Source: Saccharopolyspora aridisoli (GTDB lineage Bacteria > Actinomycetota > Actinomycetes > Mycobacteriales > Pseudonocardiaceae). Taken from it: a stretch of 64,000 nt of DNA. The translations under genes and the position numbers were made by a program. The notes below the pieces were generated by a model. It was not told where the DNA came from and searched no databases. It saw nothing but the letters and a program-made list of their open reading frames with translations. Positions 3,961 through 49,960 of the stretch are shown piece after piece; position 1 is the stretch's first letter, and each line of letters starts with the position of its first letter. The stretch spans positions 218,213-282,212 of the forward strand of contig NZ_SMKV01000003.1 of the NCBI RefSeq assembly GCF_004348445.1. The letters run 5' to 3'.

Positions 3961-4141
3961 CTGCGTGGCGGTGCGGGCGGCGGAACCTGAGATGCCCTCT
4001 GGACTCCGGGCGCCACTCCTGATGCGTGCCCGGCACGGCGTCCTGATGCGTGCCCGGCACGGCGTCGCGGCGTCCTCGCCAGACGACGTCTCAGAACCCG
4101 CGGCGGTGCCGTTCGGTCCTCACGGCTCGCGGCTTCGCCGC
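3961..4141 (+). repeat. Dispersed intergenic element, copy A
   Basis: Copy A lies between convergent genes. Landmarks shared with other copies are a left block around CGGAACCTGAGATGCC, a middle block GCACGGCGTCGCGGCGTCCT (4055-4074), and a right block CAGAACCCGCGGCGGTGCC. It ends in a hairpin GCGGC-TTC-GCCGC (4129-4141). It contains an exact tandem duplication of 24 bases (4019-4042 and 4043-4066). It aligns best with copy G read on the opposite strand. Confidence 0.8.
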
Positions 4142-4175
4142 TCGCGAACCTCCTGAAAGCGCCCAAGGGTGGAAA

Positions 4176-4205
4176 CGGCACCCGGGAACGATGTCCCGGG
4201 TGCCG
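4176..4205 (-). terminator. Terminator hairpin after the second protease
   Basis: A 12-bp perfect stem (4176-4187 with 4194-4205) with a 6-base loop is followed on the minus strand by TTTCC. It lies 20 bases beyond the protease stop codon at 4226. Confidence 0.78.
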
Positions 4206-4225
4206 CGTCAGGGGTGCTGAACGGG

Positions 4226-4972
4226 TCAGCTGCCGGTGTTCTGGTTGATCCAGTCGGCGAAGGCGGTCACGTCGGTGTAGATCGACGGGCCGGTGGCGCA
4301 GGTGGAGTCTCCGTTGCCGGAGCGGCTCGTGGCGCCGATCAGCTCCCAGCTGCCCTGGGTGCCCTTGATCTGCGGGCCGCCCGAGTCGCCGTAGCAGGCG
4401 CCGGAGTTGCCGCCCGGGTTGTCGGTGCAGATCTCGCCCGCGCCGTCGATGCCGGTGCAGCCGGCGTCGTCGACGACGCTGGTGTCGAGCTCCTGCAGGT
4501 TCGATGGAACTTCACCGCAGCCGGTCTCCGGGCAGGTCTGCCCCCAGCCGATGATGCGGCTCGGGGTGCCCGCGGCACCCGACTCGGCGGCGATCGAGAT
4601 CGGGGCGGCGGACAGCTGCTTGTCCAGCTGGAGCACCGCGAGGTCGGCGCTGTCGTGCACCTGGGTCTTGGTCACGGCGGCTTCCTCGCCACCGGTGGTG
4701 TTGTCGTTGCTGCCCACGCGGACCGTGAAGTCACCGCCGCCCTGAACGCAGTGCGCGGCCGTCACCACCCAGTCCGGCTTGATCAGCGCGCCCCCGCAGA
4801 TGTGGCTGCCCTGCTGCTGCAGCGAGACCATGAACGAGTAGGTCTCGGTCGCGTCGTGACCACCGATGATCATCGGGTCGACGTCGTCACCGGCGGCGAC
4901 GGCGGGCATGCTCAGCGCGCCCACTGCGCTGACCGCGGCGACCGCGGAGATGAGAGCCGAACGAATGCGCAT
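4226..4972 (-). CDS. Secreted chymotrypsin-fold (S1) serine protease, paralogue
   Basis: The 248-aa protein has a signal peptide at about residues 1-26 and an activation site IIGG at 35-38. The catalytic triad is His74 (TAAHC), Asp110 (SADLAVL) and Ser197 (GDSGGP). The position equivalent to chymotrypsin 189 is Gly191, preceding Ala192-Cys193, so trypsin specificity is unlikely and a neutral P1 residue is more plausible. Many blocks (GGHDATE, GTPSRIIGWG, LQEL) match the protease at 2019-2792, showing an old local duplication with the reductase gene in between. It has its own terminator at 4176-4205. It is probably an exoenzyme; the substrate is unknown. Confidence 0.9.
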   Translation of the reverse strand: MRIRSALISAVAAVSAVGALSMPAVAAGDDVDPMIIGGHDATETYSFMVSLQQQGSHICGGALIKPDWVVTAAHCVQGGGDFTVRVGSNDNTTGGEEAAVTKTQVHDSADLAVLQLDKQLSAAPISIAAESGAAGTPSRIIGWGQTCPETGCGEVPSNLQELDTSVVDDAGCTGIDGAGEICTDNPGGNSGACYGDSGGPQIKGTQGSWELIGATSRSGNGDSTCATGPSIYTDVTAFADWINQNTGS

Positions 4973-5079
4973 GTGTGTCGAATCCTCCGGGTACCCCGGC
5001 TCCGAAGGCCGGCTGGCCGCTGACGCTAACGGCGCCCCCGACCCCGGCGTACCGACGAAGGTCGTAGGGGCGAACCGAA

Positions 5080-5118
5080 AAGGCGGTGGCCCGCGGACAA
5101 TCCGCAGGCCACCGCCTT
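5080..5118 (-). terminator. Strong terminator after glpX
   Basis: A long hairpin pairs 5080-5091 with 5107-5118 (12 bp), continues with 5093-5097 paired to 5101-5105, and has a 3-base loop. On the minus strand it is followed by TTTTCGGTT. It lies 49 bases beyond the glpX stop. Confidence 0.85.
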
Positions 5119-5166
5119 GATCAAGATCGGTTCAGCCGGTTTTTCCCGGTTTCCCGATGAGGGCGA

Positions 5167-6177
5167 CTACTCGCCGCTCTCACCCAGGTCCACGTTGGCG
5201 TACTCGCGCAGCTTGGCGAGCTTGTGCGAGGCGTCGACGACGCGCGTCGTCCCGGACTTCGACCGCATCACGATCGACTGCGTGGTGCACCGGTCGGCGC
5301 GGTAGTGCACGCCGCGCAGCAGCGCGCCGTCGGTGATGCCGGTCGCCACGAAGAACATGTTGTCGCCGCGCACCAAGTCCGAAGTGGTCAGCACCTGGTT
5401 CGGGTCGTGACCGGCTTCGCGCAGCTTCGCCCGCTCCTCGTCGTCGCGCGGCCACAACCGGCCCTGGATCTCACCGTCGAGGCACTTCAGCGCGCACGCG
5501 GTGATGATGCCCTCCGGAGTGCCGCCGATGCCCAGGAGCATGTCCACGCCGCTGTTCGGGCGGGCCGCCGCGATCGCGCCCGCCACGTCGCCGTCGGAGA
5601 TGAACTGCACGCGAGCCCCGGACTCGCGGACCTCCTTGACCAGCTGCTCGTGCCGCGGCCGGTCCAGCACGCACACCGTCACGTCGGAGACGTCGACGTG
5701 CTTGGCCTTGGCGACCCGGCGGACGTTCTCCGAGATCGGGGCGCTGATGTCGATGACGCCCGCGGCTTCCGGGCCGACGGCCATCTTCTCCATGTAGAAC
5801 ACCGCGGACGGGTCGAACATGGTGCCGCGCTCGGACACCGCCAGCACCGCCAGCGCGTTCGGCATGCCCTTGCTGAGCAGCGTCGTACCGTCGATCGGGT
5901 CCACGGCGACGTCGACCTCCGGGCCTTCCCCGTTGCCGACCTCCTCGCCGTTGTAGAGCATCGGCGCTTCGTCCTTCTCGCCCTCGCCGATGACCACTGT
6001 TCCGCGCATCGACACGGTGCCGATGAGCTTGCGCATGGCGTCCACCGCGGCTCCGTCACCCGCGTTCTTGTCGCCGCGGCCGACCCAGCGGCCACCGGCC
6101 AACGCGGCTGCTTCGGTCACGCGGACGAGTTCCATCGCCAAGTTGCGATCGGGTGCTTCCGGGTGTCGTTGCGTCAT
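5167..6177 (-). CDS. glpX: Fructose-1,6-bisphosphatase, class II
   Basis: The enzyme hydrolyses fructose 1,6-bisphosphate to fructose 6-phosphate, the committed gluconeogenic step, and is the usual actinobacterial FBPase. The 336-aa product shows the family metal and substrate motifs: [11 protein letters not shown] near the N-terminus, [14 protein letters not shown], and [16 protein letters not shown] start it at the ATG at 6177 (MTQRHPEAP) because GGGGAGG lies about 6 bases upstream on the coding strand. The alternative ATG at 6201 has no ribosome site. A strong terminator follows. The divergent neighbour is the DUF4245 gene, an arrangement conserved in mycobacteria. Confidence 0.96.
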
Positions 6178-6354
6178 CGCGCCCTCCCCGTTGTGAGGCA
6201 TCGTCGGTACCGCCCGAGGCCGGCGGGAAAACGCCCCGCGCTCAGGCTTGTTGGCTGCGATCTTCCCAGATCATCGGGGTGCGGGGAGCACTCGCGTGGG
6301 GCAGCCCACTCCCTCTGCCCCTGCCCGCTGAGCTGCGGTGCTGCCGGTGAGAGC

Positions 6355-6948
6355 ATGGGTGCCGTGGCTGAACCCCGCAACCAGCAACCGGCTCCGCCCC
6401 GCCCGCCGCGGACCATGTCGGCGATGCTCTTCGCCATCCTGCCGTTGGTGCTGGTCTCGTTCGGCGTCGCAGGCCTGTTCACGCAGTGCTCGTTCACCCC
6501 CACCGGCCCCACGGTCGACAACGGATCGGTGCCCACGGTGAACGTTCAGGCCGAGCTGCACGACGCCGCAGCGGGAGTGGACTTCCCGGTGGTCGATCCG
6601 AAGCTGCCCGGCAGCTGGCGGGCCAACTCCAGCAACAGCACGACGCTGCCCTCGCACACCGAGGTCGTCCGGGTCGGCTGGCTGACCGGCGACGCGCAGT
6701 ACCTGCGCCTGGCCCAGTCCAACGCCGCCGAGGAGGAGCTGGTCGCCGGTGAGACGCGGCGAGCCCCGCAGGCGCTCGGAGCCGTCGAGGCAGGTGGTCG
6801 CCAGTGGGTCCGCTACCAGGGCGTTCGCGACGAGCAGGCGTGGGTGACCGAGCGCGACGGCGTCCGCCTGCTGATCACCGGCAACGCCCGCGAAGCGGAG
6901 TTCCGCACCTTGGCCGAAGCAGCCCTCACGGCCCCGCCGGTGCCCTGA
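6355..6948 (+). CDS. DUF4245 family membrane-anchored protein
   Basis: The 197-aa protein has one N-terminal membrane segment (about residues 22-41, MLFAILPLVLVSFGVAGLFT) after a short Pro-rich cytoplasmic tail. The rest is an extracytoplasmic domain containing FPVVDPKLPGSWRANSS and GRQWVRYQG. This layout, and its position divergent from glpX, fit the DUF4245 family (Rv1100 in M. tuberculosis, from memory). The function is unknown. Two starts are possible, ATG at 6355 or GTG at 6364, and neither has a strong ribosome site. The gene ends shortly before xseB, which is convergent. Confidence 0.82.
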   Translation: MGAVAEPRNQQPAPPRPPRTMSAMLFAILPLVLVSFGVAGLFTQCSFTPTGPTVDNGSVPTVNVQAELHDAAAGVDFPVVDPKLPGSWRANSSNSTTLPSHTEVVRVGWLTGDAQYLRLAQSNAAEEELVAGETRRAPQALGAVEAGGRQWVRYQGVRDEQAWVTERDGVRLLITGNAREAEFRTLAEAALTAPPVP

Positions 6949-6986
6949 CGGCCACCAACCGCGGCCATCGGGTGCCCAAAACCGGG

Positions 6987-7241
6987 TCAGGCGTCGTCTT
7001 CGACCGCGGCGAGGGCGCGTTCGACGCGTTCGCGCGCACCGGCGAGGTGGCGTTCGCAGACCGCCGCCAGCGCTTCGCCCTTCTCCCAGAGGGCCAGCGA
7101 GTCCTCCAGGGACAGCCCGCCGGCCTCCAGCTGCTTGACGACCTCCGCCAGCTGATCGCGCGCGTCCTCGTAGCCGAGCTCGGCGACCTCCGGGTGCTCG
7201 GCGACCGGGTCGAAGTGCTCGTCCTGCTGGTTCTCGGTCAC
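6987..7241 (-). CDS. xseB: Exodeoxyribonuclease VII small subunit
   Basis: The 84-aa protein contains the typical small-subunit core [20 protein letters not shown] followed by [17 protein letters not shown]. It forms a long helical hairpin that packs on XseA; the complex degrades single-stranded DNA to acid-soluble oligonucleotides. Its start overlaps the end of the upstream 131-aa gene by 4 bases, so the three genes xseA, the unknown gene and xseB form one leftward operon. The acidic C-terminus (AAVEDDA) is usual in actinobacteria. Confidence 0.94.
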
Positions 7242-7633
7242 GGGGTGGGGCTCTCCACATTCGCTCGCACGGACACCACCGCGGTGGCGATCGCCTGGTC
7301 GTAGCCGACGAAGGCCTCGGCGAACTCCGCGCCGTCACCTTCGCGCACCGCGTCGTTGATGCGCAGCTGGGCCTCCGCGACCCTACGTCGGTGGGCCGAC
7401 GCCGCCCACCAGGTGGGGCCCACGTGCTCCGAGGTCGCGTCGATCAAGGCTCGCAGCCTGCCGGGCAGGTCCTTGCGCTCGGCCGAATCGCACCCGCCTA
7501 GGAGCGCAACCCAGGTTCCCTCCGCCGTGACCTCGGCGGCCTCGGCGCAGCGCCGGACCTCGCCCGCCCGCTCGGCGCTGCGCGTCGCGCCCACGGTGAG
7601 GGGGAGGAACGAGGGCTCCTGCTTCGGGTGCAC
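7238..7633 (-). CDS. Unknown 131-aa protein inserted between xseA and xseB
   Basis: This reading frame (GTG start at 7633) fills the gap between xseA and xseB, overlapping xseB by 4 bases and leaving 14 bases to xseA. The protein looks soluble, with an Arg/Glu-rich helical middle ([20 protein letters not shown]) and a C-terminal part containing [21 protein letters not shown] see no signal peptide, membrane segment or catalytic motif and do not recognise the family. In M. tuberculosis xseB and xseA are adjacent, so this gene is an addition. Codon use looks like that of its neighbours. Tight packing suggests co-expression with exonuclease VII, but a shared function is only inference. Confidence 0.72.
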
Positions 7634-7647
7634 GTGGAATTCCTTGG

Positions 7648-8871
7648 TCAGTCCGGTACGACGGCGTGGACCGCGCCGTCGGCGACCCGCACCCGCAGCC
7701 GGGTGCCCGGCGGCGCGTCATCGACGGAGCGCAGCACCCCGTCGACCTCGTCGGTCTCCTCGATGCGCTGCACGATCGCGTATCCACGAGCCAGAGTGGC
7801 CGCAGGGCCCAGGGTCGTCAAGCGTGATCGTGTAGCGCTCAACGCGTGACCCTCGGTGGTGAGCACCGTGCTCATCGCCCGCCGGGAGCGTTCGCGCAGC
7901 ATCGCGACCTGCTCGGAGCGCTGCTGCAGCGGGCGGTGCGGGTCGGCCAGCGCGGGCCGGCTGCGCAGCTGGTCGAGCAGCCTGCGCTCACGATCCACCC
8001 ATCCGTGCAACGCCCGCCGAGCCCGGTCGCGAAGCTGCCGGATGCGCTGGCCCTCCTCGGCCACGTCGGGCACCACGCGCTTGCCCGCACCCGTCGGTGT
8101 GGAACAGCGCACATCGGCGACGTGGTCGAGCAGCGGTGAGTCCGGTTCGTGCCCGATCGCGCTGACCACCGGGGTCTTGCAGGCCGACACCGCTCGGCAC
8201 AGCGTCTCGTCGGAGAACGGCAGCAGGTCCTCGACGCTGCCGCCGCCGCGCGCCAGCACGATCACGTCGACCTCGGGCATCCGGTCGAGCTCCTCGAGCG
8301 CGGGCAGGATCTGGGGCACCGCGCTGGTGCCCTGCACGGCGACGTTGCGGACCTCGAACTGCACGGCCGGCCAGCGCAGCTGCGCGTTGGTCAGCACGTC
8401 GTGCTCGGCGGCCGAGGCGCGGCCGGTGATCAGGCCGACCCGGTTGGGCAGGAACGGCAGCGGCCGCTTGCGCGCCGGGTCGAACAGGCCCTCGGCCTTG
8501 AGCAGCTGTCGGAGCCGTTCGATGCGGGCCAGCAGCTCGCCGATGCCGACGGCGCGGATCTCGTCGACCCGCAGGCTCAGCGTGCCGCGACCAACGAAGA
8601 AGGTCGGCTTGCCGTGCACCACGACCCGGCTGCCATCGGTCAGCGGCGGGTCCATCTTGCGCAGCAGCGACGACGAGCAGGTCAGGGTCAGCGACACGTC
8701 CGCGGAGGGGTCGCGGAGCGTCAGGAACGCCGTCTGCGCGCCGGACCGCATCGAGATCTGGGTGATCTGCCCTTCGACCCAGATCTGCCCGAGCCGGTTG
8801 ATCCAGTCGGCGATCTTGCGGGCCACCGTCCGCACCGGCCACGGTTCCTCAGCACTGGTAGGCGAACTCAG
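7648..8871 (-). CDS. xseA: Exodeoxyribonuclease VII large subunit (probable CTG start)
   Basis: The catalytic subunit of Exo VII has an N-terminal OB-fold ([19 protein letters not shown] region), the catalytic core with [15 protein letters not shown] and [15 protein letters not shown], a coiled-coil segment, and a C-terminal LARGYAIV block. The first conventional start codon is GTG at 8835, but that would drop the conserved residues before VRTVA (P-W-P-V in this protein). The frame stays open upstream to a TGA at 8908-8910 and holds no ATG, GTG or TTG. A CTG at 8871 lies a few bases after GGAGGA on the coding strand. I therefore propose CTG initiation, giving 407 aa. If translation begins at GTG the protein is 395 aa. 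Confidence 0.88.
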
Positions 8872-8924
8872 CGTTCCTCCTCTTCTCGCGGTGTTTGTGC
8901 TTCCTGGTCATTCTGCTTGGCGCG

Positions 8925-9069
8925 GGTGGGCGAACCTGAGCGGCTCCGCGGACTCCGCGCGGCACTCCTCATGAGCATGTCGATGCGCGGCGTCGCGGCG
9001 TGCTCGGCACGAAGTACTCCCGACGGTGCCAACTGCTCAGTTGGTGGAGGAGGAAGCGACTTCGTCGCT
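8925..9069 (+). repeat. Dispersed intergenic element, copy B
   Basis: Copy B lies between xseA and the 152-aa gene. It has the core GATGCGCGGCGTCGCGGCGT (8982-9001). It also holds a hairpin CCAACT/AGTTGG (9029-9034 with 9039-9044) and the terminal hairpin AGCGAC-TTC-GTCGCT (9055-9069). The stem differs from copy A but still pairs. Confidence 0.78.
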
Positions 9070-9072
9070 CGT

Positions 9073-9531
9073 CTACTGCTCGCGCAGGCGGGTGAGGCGG
9101 TTGCTCAGCATCCGCAGGTGCTCCGGCCGTTGTTCGTTGCGCTCCTCGTGGGCGAGCAGTTCGGTGAGGTCGTCTTCGGTGTACGAGCGCAGGCGACCGC
9201 GCAGCTGGGGAAGGCTCAACGCGTCGTAGTCGGCGAGCAGCGCGTTCCCCTCGCCCTCGTGCTCGGTGACCACCTCCGGTTCCGGGACGATGTCCTCGTC
9301 GAAGGTCGCCCACGACGGTTCTTCCTCGGGCGTGCGCAGGACCGACAGCGCCTCATCGCCCTTGATCGCGAGTTCTGTGATGTGCTGCTGCACCCGCATC
9401 GACGCCTGCAACGCCTGGCTGGCGACGGTCACGGGCATGCCGAGGAGGGTGGCCGGGAGCGCGCGGGCCTGCTCGACGGCGGTCGCCGCGAGCCCCGCCG
9501 CGACCCGCACCGGGAGGGGGAACTCTGACAT
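9073..9531 (-). CDS. Conserved lipid-droplet-associated-type protein (Rv1109c-like)
   Basis: The 152-aa protein starts at an ATG at 9531 (MSEFPLPVRVAAGLAATAVE). Its first 60 residues form an amphipathic or weakly hydrophobic helical region (LPATLLGMPVTVASQALQA). An acidic linker follows, then a C-terminal helical part LPQLRGRLRSYTEDDLTELLAHE resembling a Rho-N/SAP-like fold with charged helices. Its place between xseA and ispH, and its size, match the actinobacterial family annotated in some genomes as lipid-droplet-associated (Rv1109c position). It is likely peripheral to membrane or lipid. The biochemical role is not known. Confidence 0.75.
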   Translation of the reverse strand: MSEFPLPVRVAAGLAATAVEQARALPATLLGMPVTVASQALQASMRVQQHITELAIKGDEALSVLRTPEEEPSWATFDEDIVPEPEVVTEHEGEGNALLADYDALSLPQLRGRLRSYTEDDLTELLAHEERNEQRPEHLRMLSNRLTRLREQ

Positions 9532-9680
9532 GCGCCCAGCCTGCCGCAGAAGTGGCCGCCAGACCATCGGGTCAAGGCCGGAATGTGACCGAGGACCGAC
9601 GTTGGGTGGAACCGCGGTGGACCCCTCGATGGAGTGATGGTGCGCACCGACCGGAGGCGGAGCGGGCAGGCGCGGATCCG

Positions 9681-9686
9681 TACCCT
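9681..9686 (+). promoter_or_regulatory. TAnnnT box placed for a leaderless ispH transcript
   Basis: TACCCT lies 7 nt before the ispH ATG, the position expected for a -10 element when transcription begins at the start codon. No ribosome site precedes the ATG. Confidence 0.55.
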
Positions 9687-9693
9687 TGACGGC

Positions 9694-10722: not shown

Positions 10723-10740
10723 GCTGACCTCACGCGAGAG

Positions 10741-10775
10741 AGCCGCCCGGCTCCAGGACTCGGAGCCGGGCGGCT
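10741..10775. terminator. Bidirectional terminator between ispH and the DUF6542-like gene
   Basis: A 14-bp perfect stem (10741-10754 with 10762-10775) with a 7-base loop sits between two convergent genes. TCTTC follows on the plus strand. Confidence 0.85.
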
Positions 10776-10786
10776 TCTTCGCTTCT

Positions 10787-11671: not shown

Positions 11672-11803
11672 CGCGAGAGCCCTCTAGGGGAACGGGCGCA
11701 TCACCCCACGTCGGGTGATGGTTTCGACACCACGCGGCGTGATCGTCACGTGATCATCGTGCAGCCGAATGGATGCCGTATCGCTCGGTCGAACGTGTGA
11801 GCC

Positions 11804-11833
11804 TTGACACAGGGAGTGCGGCCATCTTAGCGT
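11804..11833 (+). promoter_or_regulatory. Promoter of the sugar ABC operon
   Basis: A consensus -35 TTGACA (11804-11809) is followed after 18 bases by a -10 TAGCGT (11828-11833). The same two hexamers at the same spacing precede the isomerase operon at 19488-19517. A LacI-type operator follows two bases later. Confidence 0.8.
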
Positions 11834-11835
11834 CC

Positions 11836-11851: not shown

Positions 11852-11881
11852 GCCTGCGTGAGCGACGAGACGGGGGTCGGA

Positions 11882-26182: not shown

Positions 26183-29136
26183 GGCTGCACAGCCTGGAGG
26201 TCACCGCCTTCGGCCCGTACCGCGACCACCAGGTCGTGGACTTCGACCAGCTCGGCGCCGACGGGCTGTTCCTGCTGCACGGCGACACCGGAGCCGGCAA
26301 GACCACGCTGCTCGACGCCATCGCCTTCGCCCTCTACGGCGCCGTGCCGGGCGCGCGCAACGACGCCAAGCGGCTGCGCTGCGACACCGCCGCCGACGAG
26401 GTCGGCACCAGCGTCGTGCTGGAGCTGACGATCCAGGGCCAGCGGTTGCGGCTGGAACGCAGCCCGGAGTACCAGCGCCCGAAGAAGCGCGGCGAGGGCT
26501 GCACGACCCAGCAGGCGAAGGCGTCGCTGACCTGGATCGGCGGGACGCCGGACGCGCAGCCGCCGGAGGGTCTGACCCGCATCGACGAGGTCGGCCGGAC
26601 GGTGCAGCGGTTGCTGGGCATGAGCGTGGAGCAGTTCTTCCAAGTCGTGATGCTGCCGCAGGGCGAGTTCGCGAAGTTCCTGCGCGCCGACACCGGTGAA
26701 CGCGAGAAGCTGCTGGAGCGGCTGTTCGGCACCGAGCGGTTCGGCCAGGTCGAGAGCTGGTTCATCGACCGCCGCCGCGAGCGCCGCCGCGAGGTCGAAG
26801 CGCAGTCGCAGCAGGTCCGCGAGCTCAACGCCCGCATCTCGCAGGTGTCCGGAGCTCCGCAGACCTCTGAGGTGGGCGACGAGAACTGGCTGGAGGACAT
26901 CGAGAAGCAGGCGCTGCGCGACCTGGAGAGCACCGGCGCCGAGCACGCCCGGCTCCGCCGCGAACGCGACCAGGCCGAAGCGGCGCTGACCGAGCGCCGC
27001 GAACTCGCGGAGAAGGTCCGCCGCGTCCGCCAGGCCAACGCCACGCTCGCCGAGATCGACGCCAAGCAGGCCGAGCACGACGCCTGGCGGGCCGAGCGCG
27101 CCGCCGCCGCCCGCGCGGTCCCGGTGATCACCTCGCGCCGTGCCGCCGACCGCGCCGAGCAGGAGCGCGACCGCGCGCACGCCGAGGTCACCACGTGGGC
27201 CGACCGCTGCGAGGTCGACCCCGCGACCCCGCTCGGCGAGCTGCGCACCCGAGCGGGTGCCGAGCGCGAGCGGGCAGGTGCCCTGGCGCAGCTGATTCCC
27301 GAAGCGCAGCAGCAGGAATCCGACCAGCGCACGCTCGCCGAACTCACCGCCGCGATCACGGCGGACGAGGAGCGCGAGGCCGAACTCGTCGCCCAGCGCG
27401 ACGGGCTGCCGGACCGCATCACCGAGGTCCGCGAGCGCGTCGACGAGGCCAAGCACGCCGGAGTGCGTCTGGAAACCGTTCGCGCCCGGGGCACCGAGGT
27501 CACCGCCCTGCTGACCACCGCGCGCGAAATCCCCGCCGCGCAGCGGGAACTGGAGTCGGCGAGGACCCGCGCGCAGCAGGCCGTCGACGCCCACCAGCAG
27601 GCCCGCGACAGGTTGCAGGACCTGCGTTCCCGGCGGCTGGCGGGCATGGCCGCCGAGCTCGCCACCCGGCTCGCCGACGGCGAACCGTGCCCGGTCTGCG
27701 GCTCGGCCGAACACCCGTCCCCGAAGCGCCCGGTCGACGACCAGGTGCGCGCCGAGGACGAAGAAGCCGCCCAGACCACCGAACAGCGGGCCCAGACCGA
27801 GCGGGAACGCGCCACGACCGCGGCCCAGCAAGCCGAACAGCGGATCGCTCACCTGCGCGAACGCCTCGGTGAGCACACCGAGCCCGAACTGGCCGACGAG
27901 CTGGAGCAGCTGCGCGCCGAGCAGAACCGGCTGAGCGAGACCGCCGCCGACCTCGCCCGGCGGGAAACCGAGCTGACCAAGCTGGAGTCGGCCACCGACG
28001 AGCTCGGCGAGCAGATCTCTGCGCTGCGCACCAGGATCGCCGCATCGCGCAGCGAGAACAGCGCTCTCGCCAAGGCGATCGAGGAGCGCGAGGCCAGGTT
28101 GCGAGATGGGCGAGGCGACTTCGACAGCATCGCCGGCCGCCGCGCGCACCTGCTCGACGTCGCCGACAGGCTGGAACGGCTCATCGCCGCCCGCACGGCC
28201 CGCGATGACGCCGAGCAGCGCCTCGCCGAAGCGCGCGTCGCGCTCGCCGAAGCCGCCACCGCGGCGGATTTCGCGAACGTCGACGAAGCCCTGGCCGCCG
28301 AGCGCGACGAACAGCGCCTCGCCGAGCTGGACGAGTCGCTGGCCGAGGTCGACCGCCGCGCCGCGGGTGCGCGGGACGCGCTGGCCAGCGCCGAGCTGTT
28401 CGGCGTGGACACGGACACCGAGGTCGCTCTGGAGCGGGCTTCGGAGGCGGCGACCGTGGCCCGCGAGGCCGCTGAGCGCGCGGCGGCGCTGGCCCACCGC
28501 TCCGAGCAGCGGCACGCCGAGCTCGTCGACCTCGGCGGACGGCTCCGATCGGCGTGGGCGCAGCTGGGTCCGGCGATGACCGAGCACGCCGAGCTGGAAG
28601 CCCTGGCGGACGTCGTCAACGGGCGGGGTCAAAACGCGCGCAAGATGTCGCTGCGCGCCTACGTCCTGGCGGCCCGGTTGGAGGAGGTCGCGGTCGCCGC
28701 GACCCGCCGCCTGCAGCGGATGAGCGACGGCCGCTACTCGTTCGTGCACTCCGACGCGGCCGGTGCTCGCGGCACGCGCGGCGGCCTGGGCCTGGACGTC
28801 CTCGACGACTACTCGGGCAAGGTCCGTCCGGCCAAGACGCTCTCCGGCGGCGAATCGTTCCTGGCCTCGCTGTCACTGGCGCTGGGCCTGGCTGACGTCG
28901 TCGCGGCCGAGACCGGTGGCGCGCTGCTGGACACGCTGTTCATCGACGAGGGCTTCGGCACGCTCGACGCGGACGCGCTCGACCTGGTCATGGACACGCT
29001 CGACGAACTCCGCGCAGGTGGCAGGGTCGTCGGTCTGGTCTCCCACGTCGAGGAGATGCGCCAGCGCATCGCCGTCCGGCTCAGGGTCCGCAAGTCCCGC
29101 CACGGATCAAGCCTGGAGCTGTCAGGAACTGGTTAG
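26179..29136 (+). CDS. sbcC: Exonuclease subunit SbcC (SMC-like ATPase)
   Basis: The 985-aa Rad50-type ATPase has an N-terminal Walker [16 protein letters not shown] and long coiled coils on both sides of a zinc hook, Cys504-Pro-Val-Cys507. The C-terminal half holds the signature [20 protein letters not shown] and Walker [16 protein letters not shown]. It dimerises through the hook and controls SbcD nuclease activity on hairpin and broken DNA ends. The length is usual for actinobacteria. The coiled-coil segments are rich in Ala, Arg and Glu, which creates very long spurious frames on both strands. Copy C of the dispersed element follows. Confidence 0.95.
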
Positions 29137-29160
29137 GCCACCGTTCTCCCAAATTCCAGG

Positions 29161-29275
29161 TGGCTGAACCGCAGCGGTGCCTGGAACCGGGCGCCACTCC
29201 CGAGGTGCGCCGATGCACGCGTCGCGACTCCCGCCCGGCCCCGGAGAACCGCTGAGAAGCCGCGGCGGTGCGAGC
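29161..29275 (+). repeat. Dispersed intergenic element, copy C (degenerate)
   Basis: Copy C lies between convergent sbcC and ogt. It shares GGAACCGGGCGCCACTCCC and GATGCACGCGTCGCG (from 29212) and the right block AAGCCGCGGCGGTGC with copy A. I do not see the terminal hairpin, so the copy may have lost its 3' end. Confidence 0.6.
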
Positions 29276-29299
29276 TGGGTCCCACACCTGCAGCAACGG

Positions 29300-35818: not shown

Positions 35819-35842
35819 GGGCCTGGTGGCGGGGTCGTTGGG

Positions 35843-36000
35843 CGTGGCGGTGCGGGTGGCGGGAACTGAGCGGCTTCGTGGACTCCGGGCGCCACTCCTG
35901 GTGCAAGTCCACCGATGCACGGCGTCGCGGCGTGCTCGCCACGAAGCCGCTGCAGTGCCAGCGGCGTAGGTGGTGCGAGGGGAATGCGGCTCCGCCGCAT
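35843..36000 (+). repeat. Dispersed intergenic element, copy D
   Basis: Copy D lies between convergent genes. Its core is GATGCACGGCGTCGCGGCGT (35914-35933). An internal hairpin GCCGCTG/CAGCGGC pairs 35946-35952 with 35959-35965. The terminal hairpin ATGCGGC-TCC-GCCGCAT is at 35984-36000. Confidence 0.8.
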
Positions 36001-36011
36001 CTCCACAACGC

Positions 36012-39855: not shown

Positions 39856-39861
39856 GAAAGA

Positions 39862-40173: not shown

Positions 40174-40191
40174 CGGCCGGCTTCCCCCGAG

Positions 40192-40211: not shown

Positions 40212-40216
40212 TCGGG

Positions 40217-42640: not shown

Positions 42641-42674
42641 TGTTGGCCTCTGCGGTGGTCCTCTTGCTCGGCGT

Positions 42675-42790
42675 TGCGGGCAGGGGAACCCCCAGCGGCG
42701 ATGTGGACCGCGCGCGCCTCGACTGATGCATCTCCAGTGCACGGCGTCGAGGCGTGCTCGCCACAGCACCACTGGAGAACCTGTCGTTGC
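42675..42790 (+). repeat. Dispersed intergenic element, copy E (degenerate)
   Basis: Copy E lies between typA and the LpqW-like gene. The recognisable core is GTGCACGGCGTCGAGGCGTG followed by CTCGCCACAGC (42737-42767). The left part is diverged and no terminal hairpin is visible. Confidence 0.6.
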
Positions 42791-42948
42791 TGTGGATCGT
42801 CTGAGGGTGTGACCCCGGTGACGATCATCGGACCGCTTGCGGAACCATGGAGGGCTCTCGCGCGTCCTGCGTTCGGATGATGCCGTCCGAACCCGAGGCG
42901 CGTGGCCCGGGGTGATCCTCCGGCGGCCGATGTGAGGGGAGGTTCGGC

Positions 42949-44700: not shown

Positions 44701-44734
44701 CACTCCTCGGGAGTGCCGTGGTCGTGTTGCTCAG

Positions 44735-44900
44735 CGGGCGGGGTAGCGGAACCTGACACGCCTGCTGGCTCCGGGAGATCCCGCGACTTGAGCATGCGAC
44801 ACGCGGTGCTGCGGGTGTCCTCCCCCCAGAGGCCGTGTCGGAACCCGCGGCGGTGCCGGTCGCTTCGGGTGGGGTTCGTGAAGAAGCACCTCCGGTGCTT
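44735..44900 (+). repeat. Dispersed intergenic element, copy F
   Basis: Copy F lies between the LpqW-like gene and mshB. It shows the left block GGTAGCGGAACCTGACACGC, the right block GTCGGAACCCGCGGCGGTGC, and a terminal hairpin AAGCACC-TCC-GGTGCTT (44884-44900). Confidence 0.72.
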
Positions 44901-44941
44901 GCCTGCCGCTGGGGCCTTCGTTGTTGTTGTTCTGCGGCGAT

Positions 44942-44947
44942 TAGGCT
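44942..44947 (+). promoter_or_regulatory. TAnnnT box placed for a leaderless mshB transcript
   Basis: TAGGCT lies 6 nt before the mshB GTG at 44954. Confidence 0.55.
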
Positions 44948-44953
44948 GGACCG

Positions 44954-45865
44954 GTGACGCTGACGGCCCCACCGCGGTTGCTGCTGGTACACGCGCATCC
45001 AGACGACGAGACCCTGTGGACCGGCGGGACCATCGCCCGCTACGCCGCCCGCGGCGTGCAGGTCCACGTGGTGACCTGCACCCTCGGCGAGGAAGGCGAG
45101 GTCATCCCGGAGAGCTTGCAGGGGCTGGTGTCCGACCAGGCCGATCAGCTCGGCGGCTACCGGGTCGGTGAACTCCGCTCGGCCTGCGCCGCGCTGCGGG
45201 TCACCGACCAGCGGTTCCTGGGTGGTGTCGGCCGGTGGCGCGACTCCGGGATGCTCTGGGAGCAGCCCGGCCAGGCGACTTCCCGCCCCGACGCCCATCC
45301 GCGCGCCTTCGCCGTTGGCGACCGCGAGCCGCAGGTCGCCGCGTTGGCGGAGGTCCTCGATGAGGTCAAGCCGCAGGTCGTCGTCACCTACGCCGAGGAC
45401 GGCGGCTACGGGCACCCGGACCACGTCCGCGCCCACGAGATCACGCGCGCGGCGGTCGAGAGCGTCCCTGACGTTGACCGGTTGTTCTACGCGGTGCCCT
45501 CGCGCGATGCGCTGGCCGCGGGTCTGGCCGACCTCGCCCGTACCGACGACCTGCCCTTCGACCTGCCCGAACCGCACGAGCTGGCCAGCGTCGCCGACGA
45601 GACGATCACCACCGTCATCGACGTCGCCGAGCACCTGCCCGCCAAGATCAGCGCGCTGCGGGCCCACGGCACGCAGGTCAAGGTCTGGGTCGAGCAGTGG
45701 CGCAACGGCGACGGCGTCGCCTCCTACGCGCTGTCCAACGGCGTGGCGCACCCGGTGTTGACCACCGAGCACTACGTGCTGGCCACCGGCCCGTCCGAGG
45801 GTTGCGAGGTGGACCTGTTCGGCGGACTAGGGGTGAGCGGCACCGAACCGGTGGGGGTCCGGTGA
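44954..45865 (+). CDS. mshB: GlcNAc-Ins deacetylase of mycothiol synthesis
   Basis: The 303-aa zinc-dependent deacetylase (LmbE-like family) removes the acetyl group from GlcNAc-inositol, the second step of mycothiol biosynthesis. The zinc motif AHPDDETLWTGG and the second metal motif GGYGHPDHVRAHEI are intact. The GTG at 44954 gives the family N-terminus and is preceded by a -10-like box without a ribosome site. The downstream membrane-protein gene overlaps it by GTGA, as in mycobacteria (Rv1170-Rv1171). Its presence identifies the host as a mycothiol-producing actinobacterium. Confidence 0.95.
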   Translation: MTLTAPPRLLLVHAHPDDETLWTGGTIARYAARGVQVHVVTCTLGEEGEVIPESLQGLVSDQADQLGGYRVGELRSACAALRVTDQRFLGGVGRWRDSGMLWEQPGQATSRPDAHPRAFAVGDREPQVAALAEVLDEVKPQVVVTYAEDGGYGHPDHVRAHEITRAAVESVPDVDRLFYAVPSRDALAAGLADLARTDDLPFDLPEPHELASVADETITTVIDVAEHLPAKISALRAHGTQVKVWVEQWRNGDGVASYALSNGVAHPVLTTEHYVLATGPSEGCEVDLFGGLGVSGTEPVGVR

Positions 45866-46224
45866 CGGGTCGGGAGATGACCCTGTTCGGCTTCCTGCTG
45901 CTCGACGCGGTCCTGCTGGCCATCCTCGAGCTGATGTACCTGCCGCTCTACATCGGCTCGGTGCAGTTCCCGATCACCGCCGCCGTGGCTGCCGTGACGA
46001 CTCCGCTGCTGGTCGCCGAGGCCGGCCGGATCTCCCGCAGCCGCCGCGTCGCGGGCGCGCCGCTGGTGCTGTGGTTCGCGGTGGTGCTGGTGTTCGGCGT
46101 GTTCGGGCCCGGCGGTGACGTGGTGCTGCTCGGCAGCGACTGGCGCACCCTGCTGCTCATCGCCGGAGGCGCCCTGCCCAGCGCCATGATGCTCGGCATC
46201 GTCCTCGCCGCACCCGCGCGGTGA
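45862..46224 (+). CDS. Conserved four-helix membrane protein (Rv1171-like)
   Basis: The 120-aa protein consists almost entirely of four hydrophobic helices: LFGFLLLDAVLLAILELMYL, ITAAVAAVTTPLLVAEAG, GAPLVLWFAVVLVFGVFG and LLLIAGGALPSAMMLGIVLA. A short basic loop SRSRR lies between helices two and three. The GTG at 45862 overlaps the mshB stop, implying translational coupling. The family and position match the hypothetical membrane protein that follows mshB in mycobacteria. A link to mycothiol export or metabolism is only suggested by context. Confidence 0.83.
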   Translation: MTGREMTLFGFLLLDAVLLAILELMYLPLYIGSVQFPITAAVAAVTTPLLVAEAGRISRSRRVAGAPLVLWFAVVLVFGVFGPGGDVVLLGSDWRTLLLIAGGALPSAMMLGIVLAAPAR

Positions 46225-46347
46225 TCTCGGGCGAGGATGCCTCGTCGACACCACCGGGGGAGTACCGCAGTCTTCGTGTGGGCGAACACCGCGTTCTCGC
46301 CCCCGGTCGTCGGCCTCGGTTCGGCAGAATGGGCACCGGGAGGACCG

Positions 46348-47106
46348 ATGGCCGAAGTGATGACCGATGAACGCGTCGCCGCCGCGCTGCGGCCGTTCGT
46401 GCGGGCCGCGACGCCCGTGCTCGCCGCGCTGCGCGCGGCCGACCCGGTTCGGCTGCGCGGGCGGGAGATCGACGCCCTGGGCGACGGGGCGATCCACAAG
46501 CTGCTGCGGCAGCTCGACTCGATGCAGTTGCCCGGCAGCTCCACTTGGGACGCGATGAGCGTCGACGAGCGCTGCCACTGGTGGACGCTGCGCGTCGGCC
46601 GGTTCCTCGCACTGGCGGCCGGGCTGCCCCGGTTCGGCGGGGCGATCACGTCCCGGCTGCCGATGCGCAACGCCCTGGGCATCACCGGGCAGAGCCTGGT
46701 GCTGTGCGCGATCGCGGGCGAGCACGGGGTGACCGATCCCGCGGTCAAGGTCCAGCTGATCGCCGAGGTGCTGCTTGGGCGGAAGATCAGCCGCGAGCTG
46801 GCCGCCGGTTCCGCCGCGGACGACGCGCGCACGCAGGAGCTCACCGAGGACATCGACGCCTCGAAGCGCAAGCACGGCAGAGCGACCGTGAAGGCCGTCG
46901 TGCGCACGGTGTGGCGCATGGCACGTGCGGTGTGGGAGTTCGACTCCGAACTCGACAAGAGACCCCAGGGACGGGTGCACCACAAGCTCCTGGGGAACCT
47001 TCCCGTGGTCGGCGTCGTCGGTGGTTACCTGGGGGAACGCTCGGCCCTCAAGCGGATCGGCCGGAAGGGGGCGGAGTGGTTGCTCCAGAATGGTTTACGC
47101 CGTTAA
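46348..47106 (+). CDS. Hypothetical protein, possibly EcsC/DUF697-like
   Basis: The 252-aa protein starts at the ATG at 46348, with GGGAGG upstream. It has a helical N-terminal half with a Trp-rich patch (STWDAMSVDERCHWWTLRVG) and a central moderately hydrophobic segment, RFGGAITSRLPMRNALGITG followed by QSLVLCAIAGEHGV. The C-terminus is basic (LGERSALKRIGRKGAEWLLQ). The central segment recalls EcsC/DUF697-type membrane-associated proteins, but I am not sure. No catalytic motif was seen. It lies alone between the mshB operon and fdx, on the same strand. Confidence 0.68.
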   Translation: MAEVMTDERVAAALRPFVRAATPVLAALRAADPVRLRGREIDALGDGAIHKLLRQLDSMQLPGSSTWDAMSVDERCHWWTLRVGRFLALAAGLPRFGGAITSRLPMRNALGITGQSLVLCAIAGEHGVTDPAVKVQLIAEVLLGRKISRELAAGSAADDARTQELTEDIDASKRKHGRATVKAVVRTVWRMARAVWEFDSELDKRPQGRVHHKLLGNLPVVGVVGGYLGERSALKRIGRKGAEWLLQNGLRR

Positions 47107-47246
47107 CGCCCGCGGCGTAGAGTCGTCGGGACTCCCGAGCTGTGGGACCAGTTACGCGCTCAGGGGGGTTCGAGAGATACTGTCAGCAGTCGCGCCAGGA
47201 GATTCCTGAGCGTGCGTTGGACAACGCTTCGAGCAGGAGTGCAACC

Positions 47247-47567
47247 GTGACCTACGTGATCGCCGAGCCCTGCGTGGACGTGCTCGACAAGGCATGCATC
47301 GAAGAGTGCCCTGTCGACTGCATCTACGAGGGCGGGCGGATGCTCTACATCCACCCCGATGAGTGCGTCGACTGCGGTGCCTGCGAGCCGGTCTGCCCGG
47401 TCGAGGCCATCTACTACGAAGACGACGTGCCGGACGAGTGGGCCGCCTACACGAAGGCGAACGTGGACTTCTTCGACGAGCTCGGCTCGCCGGGTGGCGC
47501 TGCGAAGGTGGGCAAGGTCAACAAGGACGTCGAGCCCGTCACGAGCCTGCCGCCTCAGGGCGAATGA
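47247..47567 (+). CDS. fdxA: 7Fe ferredoxin
   Basis: The 106-aa ferredoxin has a [3Fe-4S] cluster set (Cys in [20 protein letters not shown]) and a [4Fe-4S] set ([12 protein letters not shown]). The C-terminal extension typical of actinobacterial 7Fe ferredoxins ends SLPPQGE. It shuttles electrons for reductive enzymes in the cytosol and is a possible donor for IspH or partner of the ferredoxin reductase at 2975, though neither pairing is shown. The GTG at 47247 follows AGGAG by 7 bases. dapC overlaps its stop by ATGA, as in M. tuberculosis (fdxC-dapC). Confidence 0.95.
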
Positions 47568-48709
47568 GTTCCGTGACCGGCCCGGGCGCAGCCGCGTCCG
47601 GGCCACGGCTCCCTGACTTCCCCTGGGACTCGCTGGCACCGCACAAGGCGACCGCCAACGCCCACCCGGACGGCATCGTCGATCTGTCCGTGGGCACCCC
47701 GGTCGACCCGGTTCCGGCGAAGCTCCAGGACGCGCTGGCCGCCGTGGCAGAGGTGCCGGGCTACCCGGCCACGCACGGCACACCGGCCCTGCGCGAGGCG
47801 GCCGTGGAGTCGCTGCGCAGGCGCTACGGCATCACCGGTCTGGAACCGGACGCGGTGCTGCCGACCATCGGCTCCAAGGAGCTGGTCGCGTGGCTGCCGA
47901 CTCTGCTGGGCGTGGGGCCCGGCGACCTCGTCGCCATCCCGGACCTGGCCTACCCGACCTACGAGGTCGGCGCGAAGATCGCCGGTGCCGAGGTCGTCCG
48001 GCTCGCCCCTGGTGAGCTGCCGCCCGCCGGGACCAGGCTGCTGTGGCTGAACTCGCCGTCCAACCCGACCGGACGCGTGCTCACCGCCGACGAGCTCGGC
48101 CGGATGGTGCGCGCCGCCCAGGACATGGGCGCCGTGGTGGCCTCAGACGAGTGCTACCTGGCGCTGGGCTGGGACGCCGAGCCGGTCTCCGTGCTGCACC
48201 CCTCGGTGGGCGCGGCGCGCGACGGCCTGCTGGCCGTGCACTCGCTGTCGAAGTCGTCGAACCTGGCCGGCTACCGAGCTGGGCTCGTCACCGGTGATCC
48301 GGTGCTGGTCGCGCGGTTGCTGGAGCTGCGCAAGCACGCCGGGATGATCGTTGCGCGCCCGGTCCAGGAGGCGGTCACCGCCGCGCTGCGCGATGACGAG
48401 CACGTCGCCGTTCAGCGCGAGCTCTACGCCGCCCGCCGCGCCGTGCTGCGTCCCGCGCTGGAATCGGCCGGGTTCACCATCGAGCACTCGGAGGCCGGGC
48501 TGTACCTGTGGTCGACCCGGGGCGAGGACGCCTGGGCGACTGTGGAATGGCTCTCGCAGCGAGGGATCCTGGCCGCACCGGGCACGTTCTACGGACCCGA
48601 CGGCTCCCGCCACGTCCGCATCGCGATGACGGCCACCGACGAGCGGATCGCCAGCGCGGCGAAGCGCTTGGGCGCTGATCGGGCAGTTCTGACCCGAACT
48701 GCCCCGTGA
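47564..48709 (+). CDS. dapC: Succinyldiaminopimelate transaminase
   Basis: The 381-aa PLP enzyme (fold type I aminotransferase) converts N-succinyl-2-amino-6-ketopimelate to N-succinyl-LL-diaminopimelate in lysine and peptidoglycan precursor synthesis. The PLP lysine is in [15 protein letters not shown]; other blocks are [12 protein letters not shown] and [12 protein letters not shown]. The start overlaps the ferredoxin stop. The last nine codons and stop are formed by an intergenic-type inverted repeat (48681-48704), so the C-terminus (AVLTRTAP) is probably recent and non-essential. dapD and dapE are 1.3 kb and 5.9 kb away. Confidence 0.94.
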
Positions 48710-48750
48710 TCCCGTCTCTTCTGCGCGATCGGTTCGGACCAGAACCGCCG
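48681..48750. repeat. Small inverted-repeat element, copy 2, overlapping the dapC 3' end
   Basis: GGGCAGTTC (48681-48689) pairs with GAACTGCCC (48696-48704) around TGACCC, inside the dapC coding end. After a spacer, GGTTCGGACCAGAACCGCC (48731-48749) repeats the words seen at 23819-23837. The two copies share the halves in the same order, both between convergent genes, and probably serve as terminators. Confidence 0.65.
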
Positions 48751-48757
48751 GGCGGAC

Positions 48758-49681
48758 TCACACCTCGGCTGCGGTTCCGCTGAGGGCGTTCCAGGTCTCC
48801 GGCCACCGGGCGCGGCGTTCTGCTCTGCGGACTTCCTCGCGTTCCACGAGACGTCCCGCGACGAAGGCGATTCCGGCGTCCGGACGTGGTCCGAAGTCGT
48901 CCAGCAGCGCCCGGATCCGCTCCTCCGCCACGCAGGCGTCCTGGTGCTCGCCGAGGACGTCCTGGAAGCCCTTAATGGCCTTGATCAGCCGCTTCACCGG
49001 GGCACCGAGCAGTGGTTCGGCGAGCTCGGCGGTGTAGCGGACCTTCTTGCCGTCGATGCGCAGCGCGTGCAGCTCGGCGTCGGCGGGCTCGGCCGGAAGC
49101 CGTTCGACGGCCTTGCGCAGCTTGCCGAACTGACGCCGCACGAGGCAGCGGAGCTGCGACGTTGCGTCCACATCGGAGCCCCGGCCGCGAAGTTCCCGCG
49201 TGGCCCGGGCCAGCAGGTCCAGCAGGTCTTGGTAGCGGTCGCTGTCCAGCGCGGCCAGCATGTCGTCCCTGGCCCGCAGGTACTCGGTGTCGAGGCCGGA
49301 AACCAGCTGCTCGGCGGCACTCCGCTCGGCCTCGGGGAGACCGGTGAACTCCGAGCGGAGCCGTTCCAGCAGGACGTCCAGGTCCCGGACCGGGCCGAGA
49401 GCCCTGCCCAGCCAGCCCAGCTCGGCGCGCAGCGGTTCGGACTCGTCGCGGTCCAGGAACGGCCGCGCGGAGCGCAGCATCGCGCGCATCCGCCGCACCG
49501 ACACCCTCATCTGGTGCAGTTCCTCGGGATCCTCCCCGACGCGCGTCCCGGCGTCGTGCGCCCGCAGCGCCCGCAACCGGGCGTCCAGCCCGGCGCGGAC
49601 GTGAGCCGCGATTGACGCCTCGCGCCCCACCTCCGCGGGCTCAGCGGAGAGCACGTCCTCGAGGAGCCGGGAAACAGCCAT
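48758..49681 (-). CDS. CHAD domain protein
   Basis: The 307-aa all-helical protein has the conserved histidine alpha-helical domain: LHQMRVSVRRMRAMLRSARP, GRALGPVRDLDVLLERL, ELHALRIDGKKVRYTAELAE and FQDVLGEHQDACVAEERIR. CHAD domains bind inorganic polyphosphate through conserved basic residues; many are fused to CYTH phosphatase domains, but this one stands alone. I chose the ATG at 49681 (MAVSRLL) over 49702. It is convergent with dapC. The actual role, perhaps polyphosphate granule binding, is inferred from the family. Confidence 0.9.
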   Translation of the reverse strand: MAVSRLLEDVLSAEPAEVGREASIAAHVRAGLDARLRALRAHDAGTRVGEDPEELHQMRVSVRRMRAMLRSARPFLDRDESEPLRAELGWLGRALGPVRDLDVLLERLRSEFTGLPEAERSAAEQLVSGLDTEYLRARDDMLAALDSDRYQDLLDLLARATRELRGRGSDVDATSQLRCLVRRQFGKLRKAVERLPAEPADAELHALRIDGKKVRYTAELAEPLLGAPVKRLIKAIKGFQDVLGEHQDACVAEERIRALLDDFGPRPDAGIAFVAGRLVEREEVRRAERRARWPETWNALSGTAAEV

Positions 49682-49743
49682 CCCCCATGCTAGACCGAAC
49701 AACTCACCCGACAGCCTGCTCCGAACGGACCAAACTCAGCGGA

Positions 49744-49778
49744 AAGGGCCCCTCCCACCTGCGATGGGAGGGGCCCTT
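49744..49778 (-). terminator. Terminator downstream of dapD
   Basis: A 14-bp perfect stem (49744-49757 with 49765-49778) and a 7-base loop are followed on the minus strand by TCC after the stem Ts. It sits between dapD and the CHAD gene, beyond copy G. Confidence 0.78.
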
Positions 49779-49795
49779 CCCGAGATCCGACGCGA

Positions 49796-49960
49796 GCGGC
49801 GGAGCCGCGAGGAGCGAAAGCCACTCTCGCGACCTGCACCGCCGCGGGCTCTGGGACGTCGCCTCGTGAGGGCACCGCGACGCCGTGCATCGGCCGGCAC
49901 GCGGTGGCGCCGGGAGCCAGGAGGCGTCTCAGGTCCCGCTACCTGCGCGGCGGAGCGAGA
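49796..49960 (-). repeat. Dispersed intergenic element, copy G (opposite strand)
   Basis: Read on the minus strand it starts with GTAGCGGGACCTGAGACGCC, has the core GATGCACGGCGTCGCGGTGC, the right block CAGAGCCCGCGGCGGTGC, and ends in the hairpin GCGGC-TCC-GCCGC (49808-49796). It matches copy A along its whole length. It lies just downstream of dapD in the dapD direction. Confidence 0.8.

What the first reader, a model, noticed from the sequence alone, without database searches (positions are those of the whole stretch)
3961..49960. A dispersed intergenic element with a covarying terminal hairpin (seven copies)
Copies lie at 3961-4141, 8925-9069, 29161-29275, 35843-36000, 42675-42790, 44735-44900 (plus) and 49796-49960 (minus). 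All are between genes. They share a left block near GGAACCTGAG, a core near GATGCACGGCGTCGCGGCGT and a right block CCCGCGGCGGTGC. Five copies end in a short hairpin with a TTC or TCC loop, and the stem differs between copies while staying paired: GCGGC/GCCGC, AGCGAC/GTCGCT, ATGCGGC/GCCGCAT and AAGCACC/GGTGCTT. Compensatory change implies selection for RNA (or cruciform) structure rather than sequence. No protein is encoded. Seven copies in 64 kb would mean many hundreds genome-wide. It could be a REP-like non-autonomous element, a family of 3' RNA structures or a small RNA.
Basis: seen in the sequence. Interest (0 to 1): 0.82.

Follow-up and report, generated by a model that had tools for sequence, protein, structure and literature searches.

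The report
Mobile shape-keeping hairpins behind genes
This Saccharopolyspora genome carries at least 130 copies of a non-coding repeat of about 180 letters that mostly sits just behind the ends of genes and keeps one hairpin fold while the letters of its stems change in pairs; it likely spreads as a passive mobile element and is predicted to act as a folded tail on messenger RNAs, so it would offer a natural test of how a shape, rather than a sequence, is inherited and selected.

Summary
All seven window copies match one covariance model (copy 3 weakly, E 0.004). The own genome has at least 130 copies (capped); 19 of 19 genus genomes, 30 of 120 genomes of the family and 0 of 12 of other families match. 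Most copies lie against a stop codon, mostly in sense. Sister species lack them, keep remnants or hold them inverted at orthologous sites, and one species shows a burst: the family disperses. In another genus copies stay at orthologous loci with paired stem changes beside downstream spacer that hardly aligns: some are probably selected. G-U pairs are hardly commoner than A-C, so pairing looks DNA-like. No Rfam family, RAYT link, autonomous copy or firm target duplication was found. Best reading: an ERIC-like non-autonomous mobile hairpin, partly domesticated as a 3'-UTR structure.

The parts
3954..4151 (+). copy 1; core hairpin 3967-4110, outer stem 3987-4002 with 4079-4094, terminal hairpin 4129-4141; holds an internal tandem duplication near its tip
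   Evidence: stop codon of the upstream gene at 3946; site empty in S. dendranthemae and S. rhizosphaerae
8906..9070 (+). copy 2; core 8916-9030, terminal hairpin 9055-9069; antisense to both neighbours, its 3' end next to the stop codon of the minus-strand gene at 9073
   Evidence: decayed left half of an element at the same site in S. dendranthemae
29137..29280 (+). copy 3, decayed; core match 29150-29272
   Evidence: E 0.004; stop codon at 29136; an inverted copy at the orthologous site in S. endophytica
35819..36011 (+). copy 4; core 35846-35971 by the model, outer stem 35866-35881 with 35939-35951, terminal hairpin 35984-36000
   Evidence: the empty site in S. dendranthemae is a single CTAG shared by two convergent stop codons, here CTAG lies on both sides
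42657..42800 (+). copy 5, partly decayed, right end uncertain; core 42670-42791, stem 42694-42706 with 42761-42773
   Evidence: orthologous copies, intact or decayed, in S. endophytica, S. ipomoeae, S. flava; none found in S. dendranthemae
44718..44908 (+). copy 6; core 44733-44857, outer stem 44753-44768 with 44826-44841, terminal hairpin 44884-44900
   Evidence: same site in S. endophytica, S. ipomoeae, S. flava; inverted in S. dendranthemae
49786..49966 (-). copy 7; core 49835-49952, outer stem 49917-49932 with 49851-49866, terminal hairpin 49796-49808
   Evidence: site empty in S. flava, S. ipomoeae, S. dendranthemae, S. rhizosphaerae; remnant in S. endophytica

Best explanation
It is a family of non-coding repeats of about 180 bp, each built on one long hairpin, that has dispersed mostly to positions just behind stop codons, most likely as a non-autonomous mobile element moved by an unidentified enzyme, and that is predicted to work as a folded 3'-UTR or intercistronic structure once it is transcribed. 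Shown: the family, its structure and paired stem changes, its place next to stop codons, presence, absence and inversion at orthologous sites, a set of near-identical copies in one species, and retention with paired changes at a few loci of another genus. Inferred: mobility in trans by a hairpin-recognising enzyme; selection on the hairpin as a shape, with Watson-Crick pairing probably also refreshed by template switching; and an effect on the mRNA (protecting the 3' end, or giving neighbouring cistrons different lifetimes, as reported for ERIC), since at several sites, by eye, a terminator-like hairpin lies further downstream, so the element would be transcribed.
For: Copy number and spread. 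Structure: 22-row alignment 82.7% of cells paired against 31.6-50.4% when slid; tree-based covariation test on 101 copies, 7 column pairs at E below 0.05 among all pairs, all 7 predicted, 15 of 39 in the structure-given test; corrected closing stem, C-G 82 and G-C 12 at columns 15/111. Position: of 101 copies (some of them orthologues of each other) 81 have the upstream gene on the same strand, 63 of these 81 with the stop within 38 nt of the core; 15 are antisense, 10 of these with the opposing stop 27-57 nt beyond the core; 4 divergent; 1 without an upstream call. Own genome: 3 of 37 divergent against 85 of 265 intergenic regions of 180 bp or more; for the 34 of 37 that face a stop, median edge-to-stop distance 7.5 nt against 28.5 for random placement in the same gaps, 0 of 1000 as low. 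Dispersal: empty, remnant or inverted orthologous sites; near-identical copies at unrelated sites in S. shandongensis, by eye. Retention: gatB locus in 5 of 7 genomes of genus g45, ring-hydroxylase locus in 3, acyl-CoA dehydrogenase locus in 2; at gatB 10 of 31 pairs changed on both sides and 92.3% of cells pair, against 40.0-54.8% when slid, 7 of 60 unpaired columns vary, while the spacer downstream hardly aligns.
Against: No autonomous copy in 3.4 Mb of held sequence (two far-apart half pairs turned up, which I took for separate copies). No firm target duplication: 4 of 98 copies share a YTAR word on both sides against 1.5 expected, 86 of 2000 shuffles as high. No transposase identified. Ends differ between lineages. 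No expression data, so transcription and any mRNA effect are untested. Some orthologous copies inside Saccharopolyspora decay (copies 3 and 5), which fits neutral junk better than function. In g45 one gatB copy (G149) is partly broken (0 compensated and 5 broken pairs against two of its relatives). In one search the count of pairs changed on both sides is only modestly above shuffles (18 against 14.3, 10 of 500 as high), and the number of pair types is not above them (217 of 500).
Confidence: 0.58

Rival explanations
1. A purely selfish MITE-like element with no host role. The hairpin is kept only because copies that fold are the ones that move, and paired changes come largely from template switching between the arms.
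For: Turnover and decay in Saccharopolyspora; near-identical set in S. shandongensis; G-U 79 against A-C 67 of 3091 cells in 31 pairs, 8 often-mismatched pairs left out, 204 against 180 in all 39, 64 against 46 of 2799; no one-sided paired change in ten gatB comparisons, which is what one-step double changes would give.
Against: Retention at fixed spacing behind gatB (2 nt in 4 of 5), a ring-hydroxylase gene (23-24 nt in 3) and an acyl-CoA dehydrogenase gene (24 nt in 2) across species of g45, which hold one to four detected copies each, with loops kept while the neighbouring spacer is scrambled.
Confidence: 0.25
2. A host-encoded regulatory or terminator RNA family that does not move; presence and absence reflect loss and horizontal exchange of gene neighbourhoods.
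For: Sense bias (51 sense against 15 antisense among copies between co-directional genes), tight spacing to stop codons, in-place covariation.
Against: Near-identical copies at unrelated sites, clean absence with collinear flanks in four of five sister species (copy 7), inversion at three sites, two of them resting on weak matches; terminator-like hairpins downstream of the element at several sites (by eye; no terminator scan was run).
Confidence: 0.12
3. A REP/REPIN-type element moved by a RAYT (Y1) transposase.
For: A GT(A/G)G tetranucleotide sits at the 5' foot of the hairpin in 85 of 101 copies, like the REP head described in PMC2817692 (passages seen). 14 of the 37 carriers do have some Y1_Tnp match.
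Against: 23 of the 37 carriers have none, among them the own genome and G001, G002, G003, G004, G008, G013, G015, which carry 65 to 116 matches each; none of 20 Y1 loci has the element within about 1.5 kb at E below 0.05 (best E 0.055).
Confidence: 0.04
4. Chance similarity of high-G+C intergenic sequence.
For: Three window copies fold alone only moderately or slightly better than shuffles (z -2.26, -0.64, -0.82).
Against: E-values to 6e-23; no match in 12 other-family genomes or in 62 named loci of other genera; covariation.
Confidence: 0.01

Closest known systems
ERIC / IRU / RU-1 of enterobacteria
   Same: Short (127 bp) non-coding repeat between genes with a strongly paired transcript; thought mobile; co-transcribed and reported to alter stability of the upstream transcript (PMC2229807, passages seen).
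   Different: Here the stems diverge freely between copies while loops stay fixed; longer, with a second hairpin; placed against stop codons; TIR and TA duplication not established; other phylum.
REP / REPIN with RAYT
   Same: More than 100 copies, extragenic, GT(A/G)G at the foot of a hairpin.
   Different: Hairpin about 105 nt; no Y1 transposase in 23 of 37 carriers; none of 20 Y1 loci flanked by it.
MITEs in general (Correia/NEMIS, RUP, QMITE)
   Same: Short, no protein, stable fold, dispersal (PMC2229807 and PMC10969869, passages seen).
   Different: G+C rich (0.61-0.78 in the 102 matches), no clear TIR/TSD or parent IS found.
Integron attC sites (recalled)
   Same: Structure kept, stem sequence variable, placed behind stop codons.
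   Different: Not in cassette arrays; integrase not searched.

Membership tests
REP/RAYT | GT(A/G)G head at the 5' foot of a hairpin | tested here: met
   85 of 101 copies
REP/RAYT | RAYT (Y1 transposase) gene in the genome, flanked by the repeats | tested here: not met
   16 of 58 genomes have a Y1_Tnp match, the own genome none; 0 of 20 Y1 loci have the element nearby at E below 0.05
REP/RAYT | More than 100 extragenic copies | tested here: met
   at least 130 in the own genome; 0 of 37 placed copies inside a called gene
MITE | Terminal inverted repeats | tested here: inconclusive
   imperfect ends GAGGTTTTTC / AGCGTTTTTC seen in the S. shandongensis copies; ends differ elsewhere
MITE | Target-site duplication | tested here: inconclusive
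   4 of 98 against 1.5 expected; two sites with empty alleles show a doubled CTAG or TTAA, both at overlapping convergent stops
MITE | A+T rich | tested here: not met
   G+C 0.61-0.78 of the 102 matches
MITE | Related autonomous element | tested here: inconclusive
   no split or long version recognised in 3.4 Mb held; not a whole-genome test
ERIC | Imperfect palindrome of about 127 bp between genes, in transcribed regions | tested here: inconclusive
   palindrome and place met; transcription not tested
ERIC | Effect on stability of the upstream mRNA | not testable with these tools
   no expression data
ERIC | Sequence homology to ERIC | not tested
   ERIC sequence not compared
Rfam families | Match to any of 4227 families | tested here: not met
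   window 0 at gathering score; five carrier loci: 4 weak matches, none at the element; six carrier loci: 0 at E 1
Integron attC | Cassette array with integrase | tested here: inconclusive
   copies are dispersed over many contigs, not arrayed; integrase not searched

The most novel reading that the evidence does not exclude
A mobile element addressed by shape: its stems may take almost any sequence, its loops and joints are fixed, and it lands at stop codons. In some lineages it multiplies to a hundred copies and more; in others a few copies are kept as 3'-end or intercistronic control elements, a bacterial counterpart of SINEs that are born from, or turned into, functional RNAs.
Probability: 0.3. 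Interest if true: 0.82.

Novelty: new variant of a known kind. Interest (0 to 1): 0.62.

Why it matters
It gives one system, in antibiotic-producing actinomycetes probably including S. erythraea, in which a hundred and more natural variants per genome share a shape but not a stem sequence. That makes two open questions testable: whether paired stem changes reflect selection or template switching, and how a dispersed repeat becomes a gene-control element. It also warns that copies behind many genes may affect mRNA ends in industrial strains.

Tried and rejected
RAYT/IS200 mobilisation: rejected as the general mechanism. CTAG or YTAR as a strict target: CTAG near the left border in 13 of 98 copies, near the right border in 10, on both in 3; TAG enriched among adjacent stops (20 of 61 left, 13 of 31 right, background 111 of 739), but the paired-word test is not convincing. 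A first closing stem (columns 7-12 with 107-112), used in R1 and, was replaced by columns 14-17 with 109-112 because column 111 covaries with 15 (G 62.0) and not with 8 (G 0.6); the covariation test was not rerun with the corrected stem. RNAalifold on the raw alignment gave little. Autonomous version: none recognised. Literature: six answered searches and passages of three S. erythraea papers showed no description of this repeat; the library is open-access only. G-U against A-C in copies with few mismatches (49 against 22) is not used, because A-C was counted as a mismatch in choosing them.

Rows left out: of 52 matches, 37 were used (14 weaker than E 0.01 and one duplicate place dropped). The 98 copies were picked by hand at 60 bits or more, leaving out repeats of one place as far as I saw them. 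In one search, 3 of 37 copies without a facing stop were dropped, and negative distances were set to 0; element edges are core -15 and +45. Genes are from my own codon-usage caller: stops are reliable, starts approximate. G147 and G148 of the 22 genus genomes were not searched with R1.
Full report
What was checked. The seven stretches were read and aligned with 28 further places found by BLAST with copy 1 in the own genome (46 matched stretches, itself included; alignment). They are one family. The window belongs to a Saccharopolyspora close to S. endophytica (97% identity of a transporter protein); the genome has 6.0 Mb in 83 contigs.

Structure. From the base: a closing stem of 4 bp (GCGG/CCGC, GGGG/CCCC in other copies), an AAC joint, an outer stem of 16 bp, a CTCC/CTC joint, an inner stem of about 12 positions with mismatches, and a small tip hairpin. 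A 22-row alignment gave 82.7% standard pairs, against 31.6-50.4% when one side is slid, with 18 of 39 pairs changed on both sides (14.3 in shuffles). On 101 distinct copies (102 rows) a G-test with average-product correction, against 400 null alignments evolved on the tree of the copies, gave 7 column pairs at E below 0.05; all 7 are predicted pairs. This is my own imitation of R-scape, not R-scape. The closing stem was corrected afterwards: column 111 covaries with 15 (C-G 82, G-C 12, U-G 3), and 110 with 16 (G-C 84, A-U 9). Paired columns vary more than unpaired ones (mean entropy 0.80 against 0.53 bits). Three intact copies fold alone into this shape (z -3.2 to -3.8 for L064, L235, L237); three window copies do so less well (z -2.26, -0.64, -0.82).

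Distribution. The model R1 found 130 matches at E 0.01 or better in the own genome, with only 150 candidates scored. All 19 genus genomes, own included, carry it (5 to 116 matches, capped at 116), none of 12 genomes from other families of the order. Among 120 Pseudonocardiaceae genomes, 30 from 12 of 46 genera, own genus included, have it at E 0.001 (30 candidates scored per genome). One carrier, G042, has a contig of 8,212,805 bp, which I recall as the chromosome of S. erythraea NRRL 2338. G067 matches the named Actinopolyspora xinjiangensis contig by length and place.

Position. In 0.86 Mb of the own genome (a little less without overlaps) 37 copies were placed: 25 behind a gene on the same strand, 9 antisense between co-directional genes, 3 divergent, none inside a called gene; background intergenic regions of 180 bp or more were 142 co-directional, 85 divergent, 38 convergent. 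Over 101 copies of many species, some orthologous to each other: 81 sense, 15 antisense, 4 divergent, 1 without an upstream call. In the sense copies the stop codon lies a median 27 nt before the core, that is, about at the start of the conserved 5' part (18 of 81 are 47 nt or more away); in 9 of the 15 antisense copies the opposing stop lies 41-57 nt beyond the core, about at the end of the terminal hairpin. In the own genome the median edge-to-stop distance is 7.5 nt, against 28.5 for random placement in the same gaps (34 copies). At several sites, by eye, a terminator-like hairpin lies further downstream (copies 1 and 7 and others), so the element would be inside the transcript. This is inference; no terminator scan was run.

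Turnover. At orthologous sites in S. endophytica, S. ipomoeae, S. flava, S. rhizosphaerae and S. dendranthemae the element is often absent with collinear flanks (copy 4 cleanly absent in three, copy 7 in four), present as a remnant, or inverted (three sites, two of them resting on weak matches). The patterns suggest gains and also losses; one S. flava site keeps only the 3' tail. In S. shandongensis the ten copies fetched, chosen among the best matches, are by eye nearly identical over more than 200 bp at different sites. The family therefore disperses. Its ends differ between lineages, and duplications of the target are not established. Two sites where convergent genes of a sister species share an overlapping CTAG or TTAA stop have that word on both sides of the element; keeping both stops may be the reason.

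Retention. In genus g45 (7 of 7 genomes, 13 matches in all) copies sit behind gatB in five species, behind a ring-hydroxylase beta subunit in three (in two of these the next called gene is its reductase), and behind an acyl-CoA dehydrogenase gene in two; 12 of 13 copies have a same-strand stop within 32 nt upstream of the core, L246 has no upstream gene called (one protein of each kind and one reductase checked by Pfam). G143, G122 and G095 have a single detected match each, so no second copy is known that could have overwritten it. At gatB, 10 of 31 pairs changed on both sides and 92.3% of cells pair, against 40.0-54.8% when slid (five sequences only); unpaired columns vary at 7 of 60 places, while the spacer just downstream hardly aligns. 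This is the strongest sign of selection in place. The gatB copy of G149 is partly broken. The three ring-hydroxylase copies likewise have three different, complementary outer stems, read by eye.

DNA or RNA. If selection acted on RNA alone, G-U pairs should be much commoner than A-C. They are not: 204 against 180 in all 39 pairs, 79 against 67 of 3091 cells when 8 often-mismatched pairs are left out, 64 against 46 of 2799 with the corrected stem. Ten gatB comparisons show 0 to 8 double changes, 0 to 7 broken pairs and no one-sided paired change. One inner pair is G-U in 87 of 101 copies. I read this as pairing kept at the Watson-Crick level, by selection on a DNA hairpin, by template switching (PMC8794818), or both, while fixed, unreversed loops argue for selection on the whole shape.

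Verdict. A real, unlisted family (no Rfam match at the element; not seen in six literature searches), best compared with ERIC in place and presumed action, but with freely varying stems and fixed loops. REP/RAYT membership fails on the enzyme. The mover is unknown, and no mRNA effect has been tested.

Noticed in passing
window 60104-60220: Cluster of palindromic TTTCAATGGAAA-like units with 24-nt spacing inside a 34-nt inverted repeat; similar units flank element copies in S. shandongensis.
   Followed up: partly
L283-L287 (S. dendranthemae): A second palindromic repeat of about 70 bp with ends TCCCAGTTTTAGTC / GACTAAAACTGGGA lies to the right of these copies, and part of it to their left, in either orientation.
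   Followed up: no
window 3967-4110; L008: Tandem duplication of a stretch near the tip of the hairpin, two units in copy 1 and three in L008.
   Followed up: no
L244 and L247: Copies behind the ring-hydroxylase gene carry an insertion of about 55 nt in the tip region, in two species.
   Followed up: no
L216:6292-6413: Copy in S. endophytica whose two outer-stem arms seem to belong to different subtypes and no longer pair, like a recombinant.
   Followed up: no
window 2022-2190 and 4232-4400: Two similar stretches (73%) in nearby minus-strand genes, one of them trypsin-like: probably paralogues.
   Followed up: no
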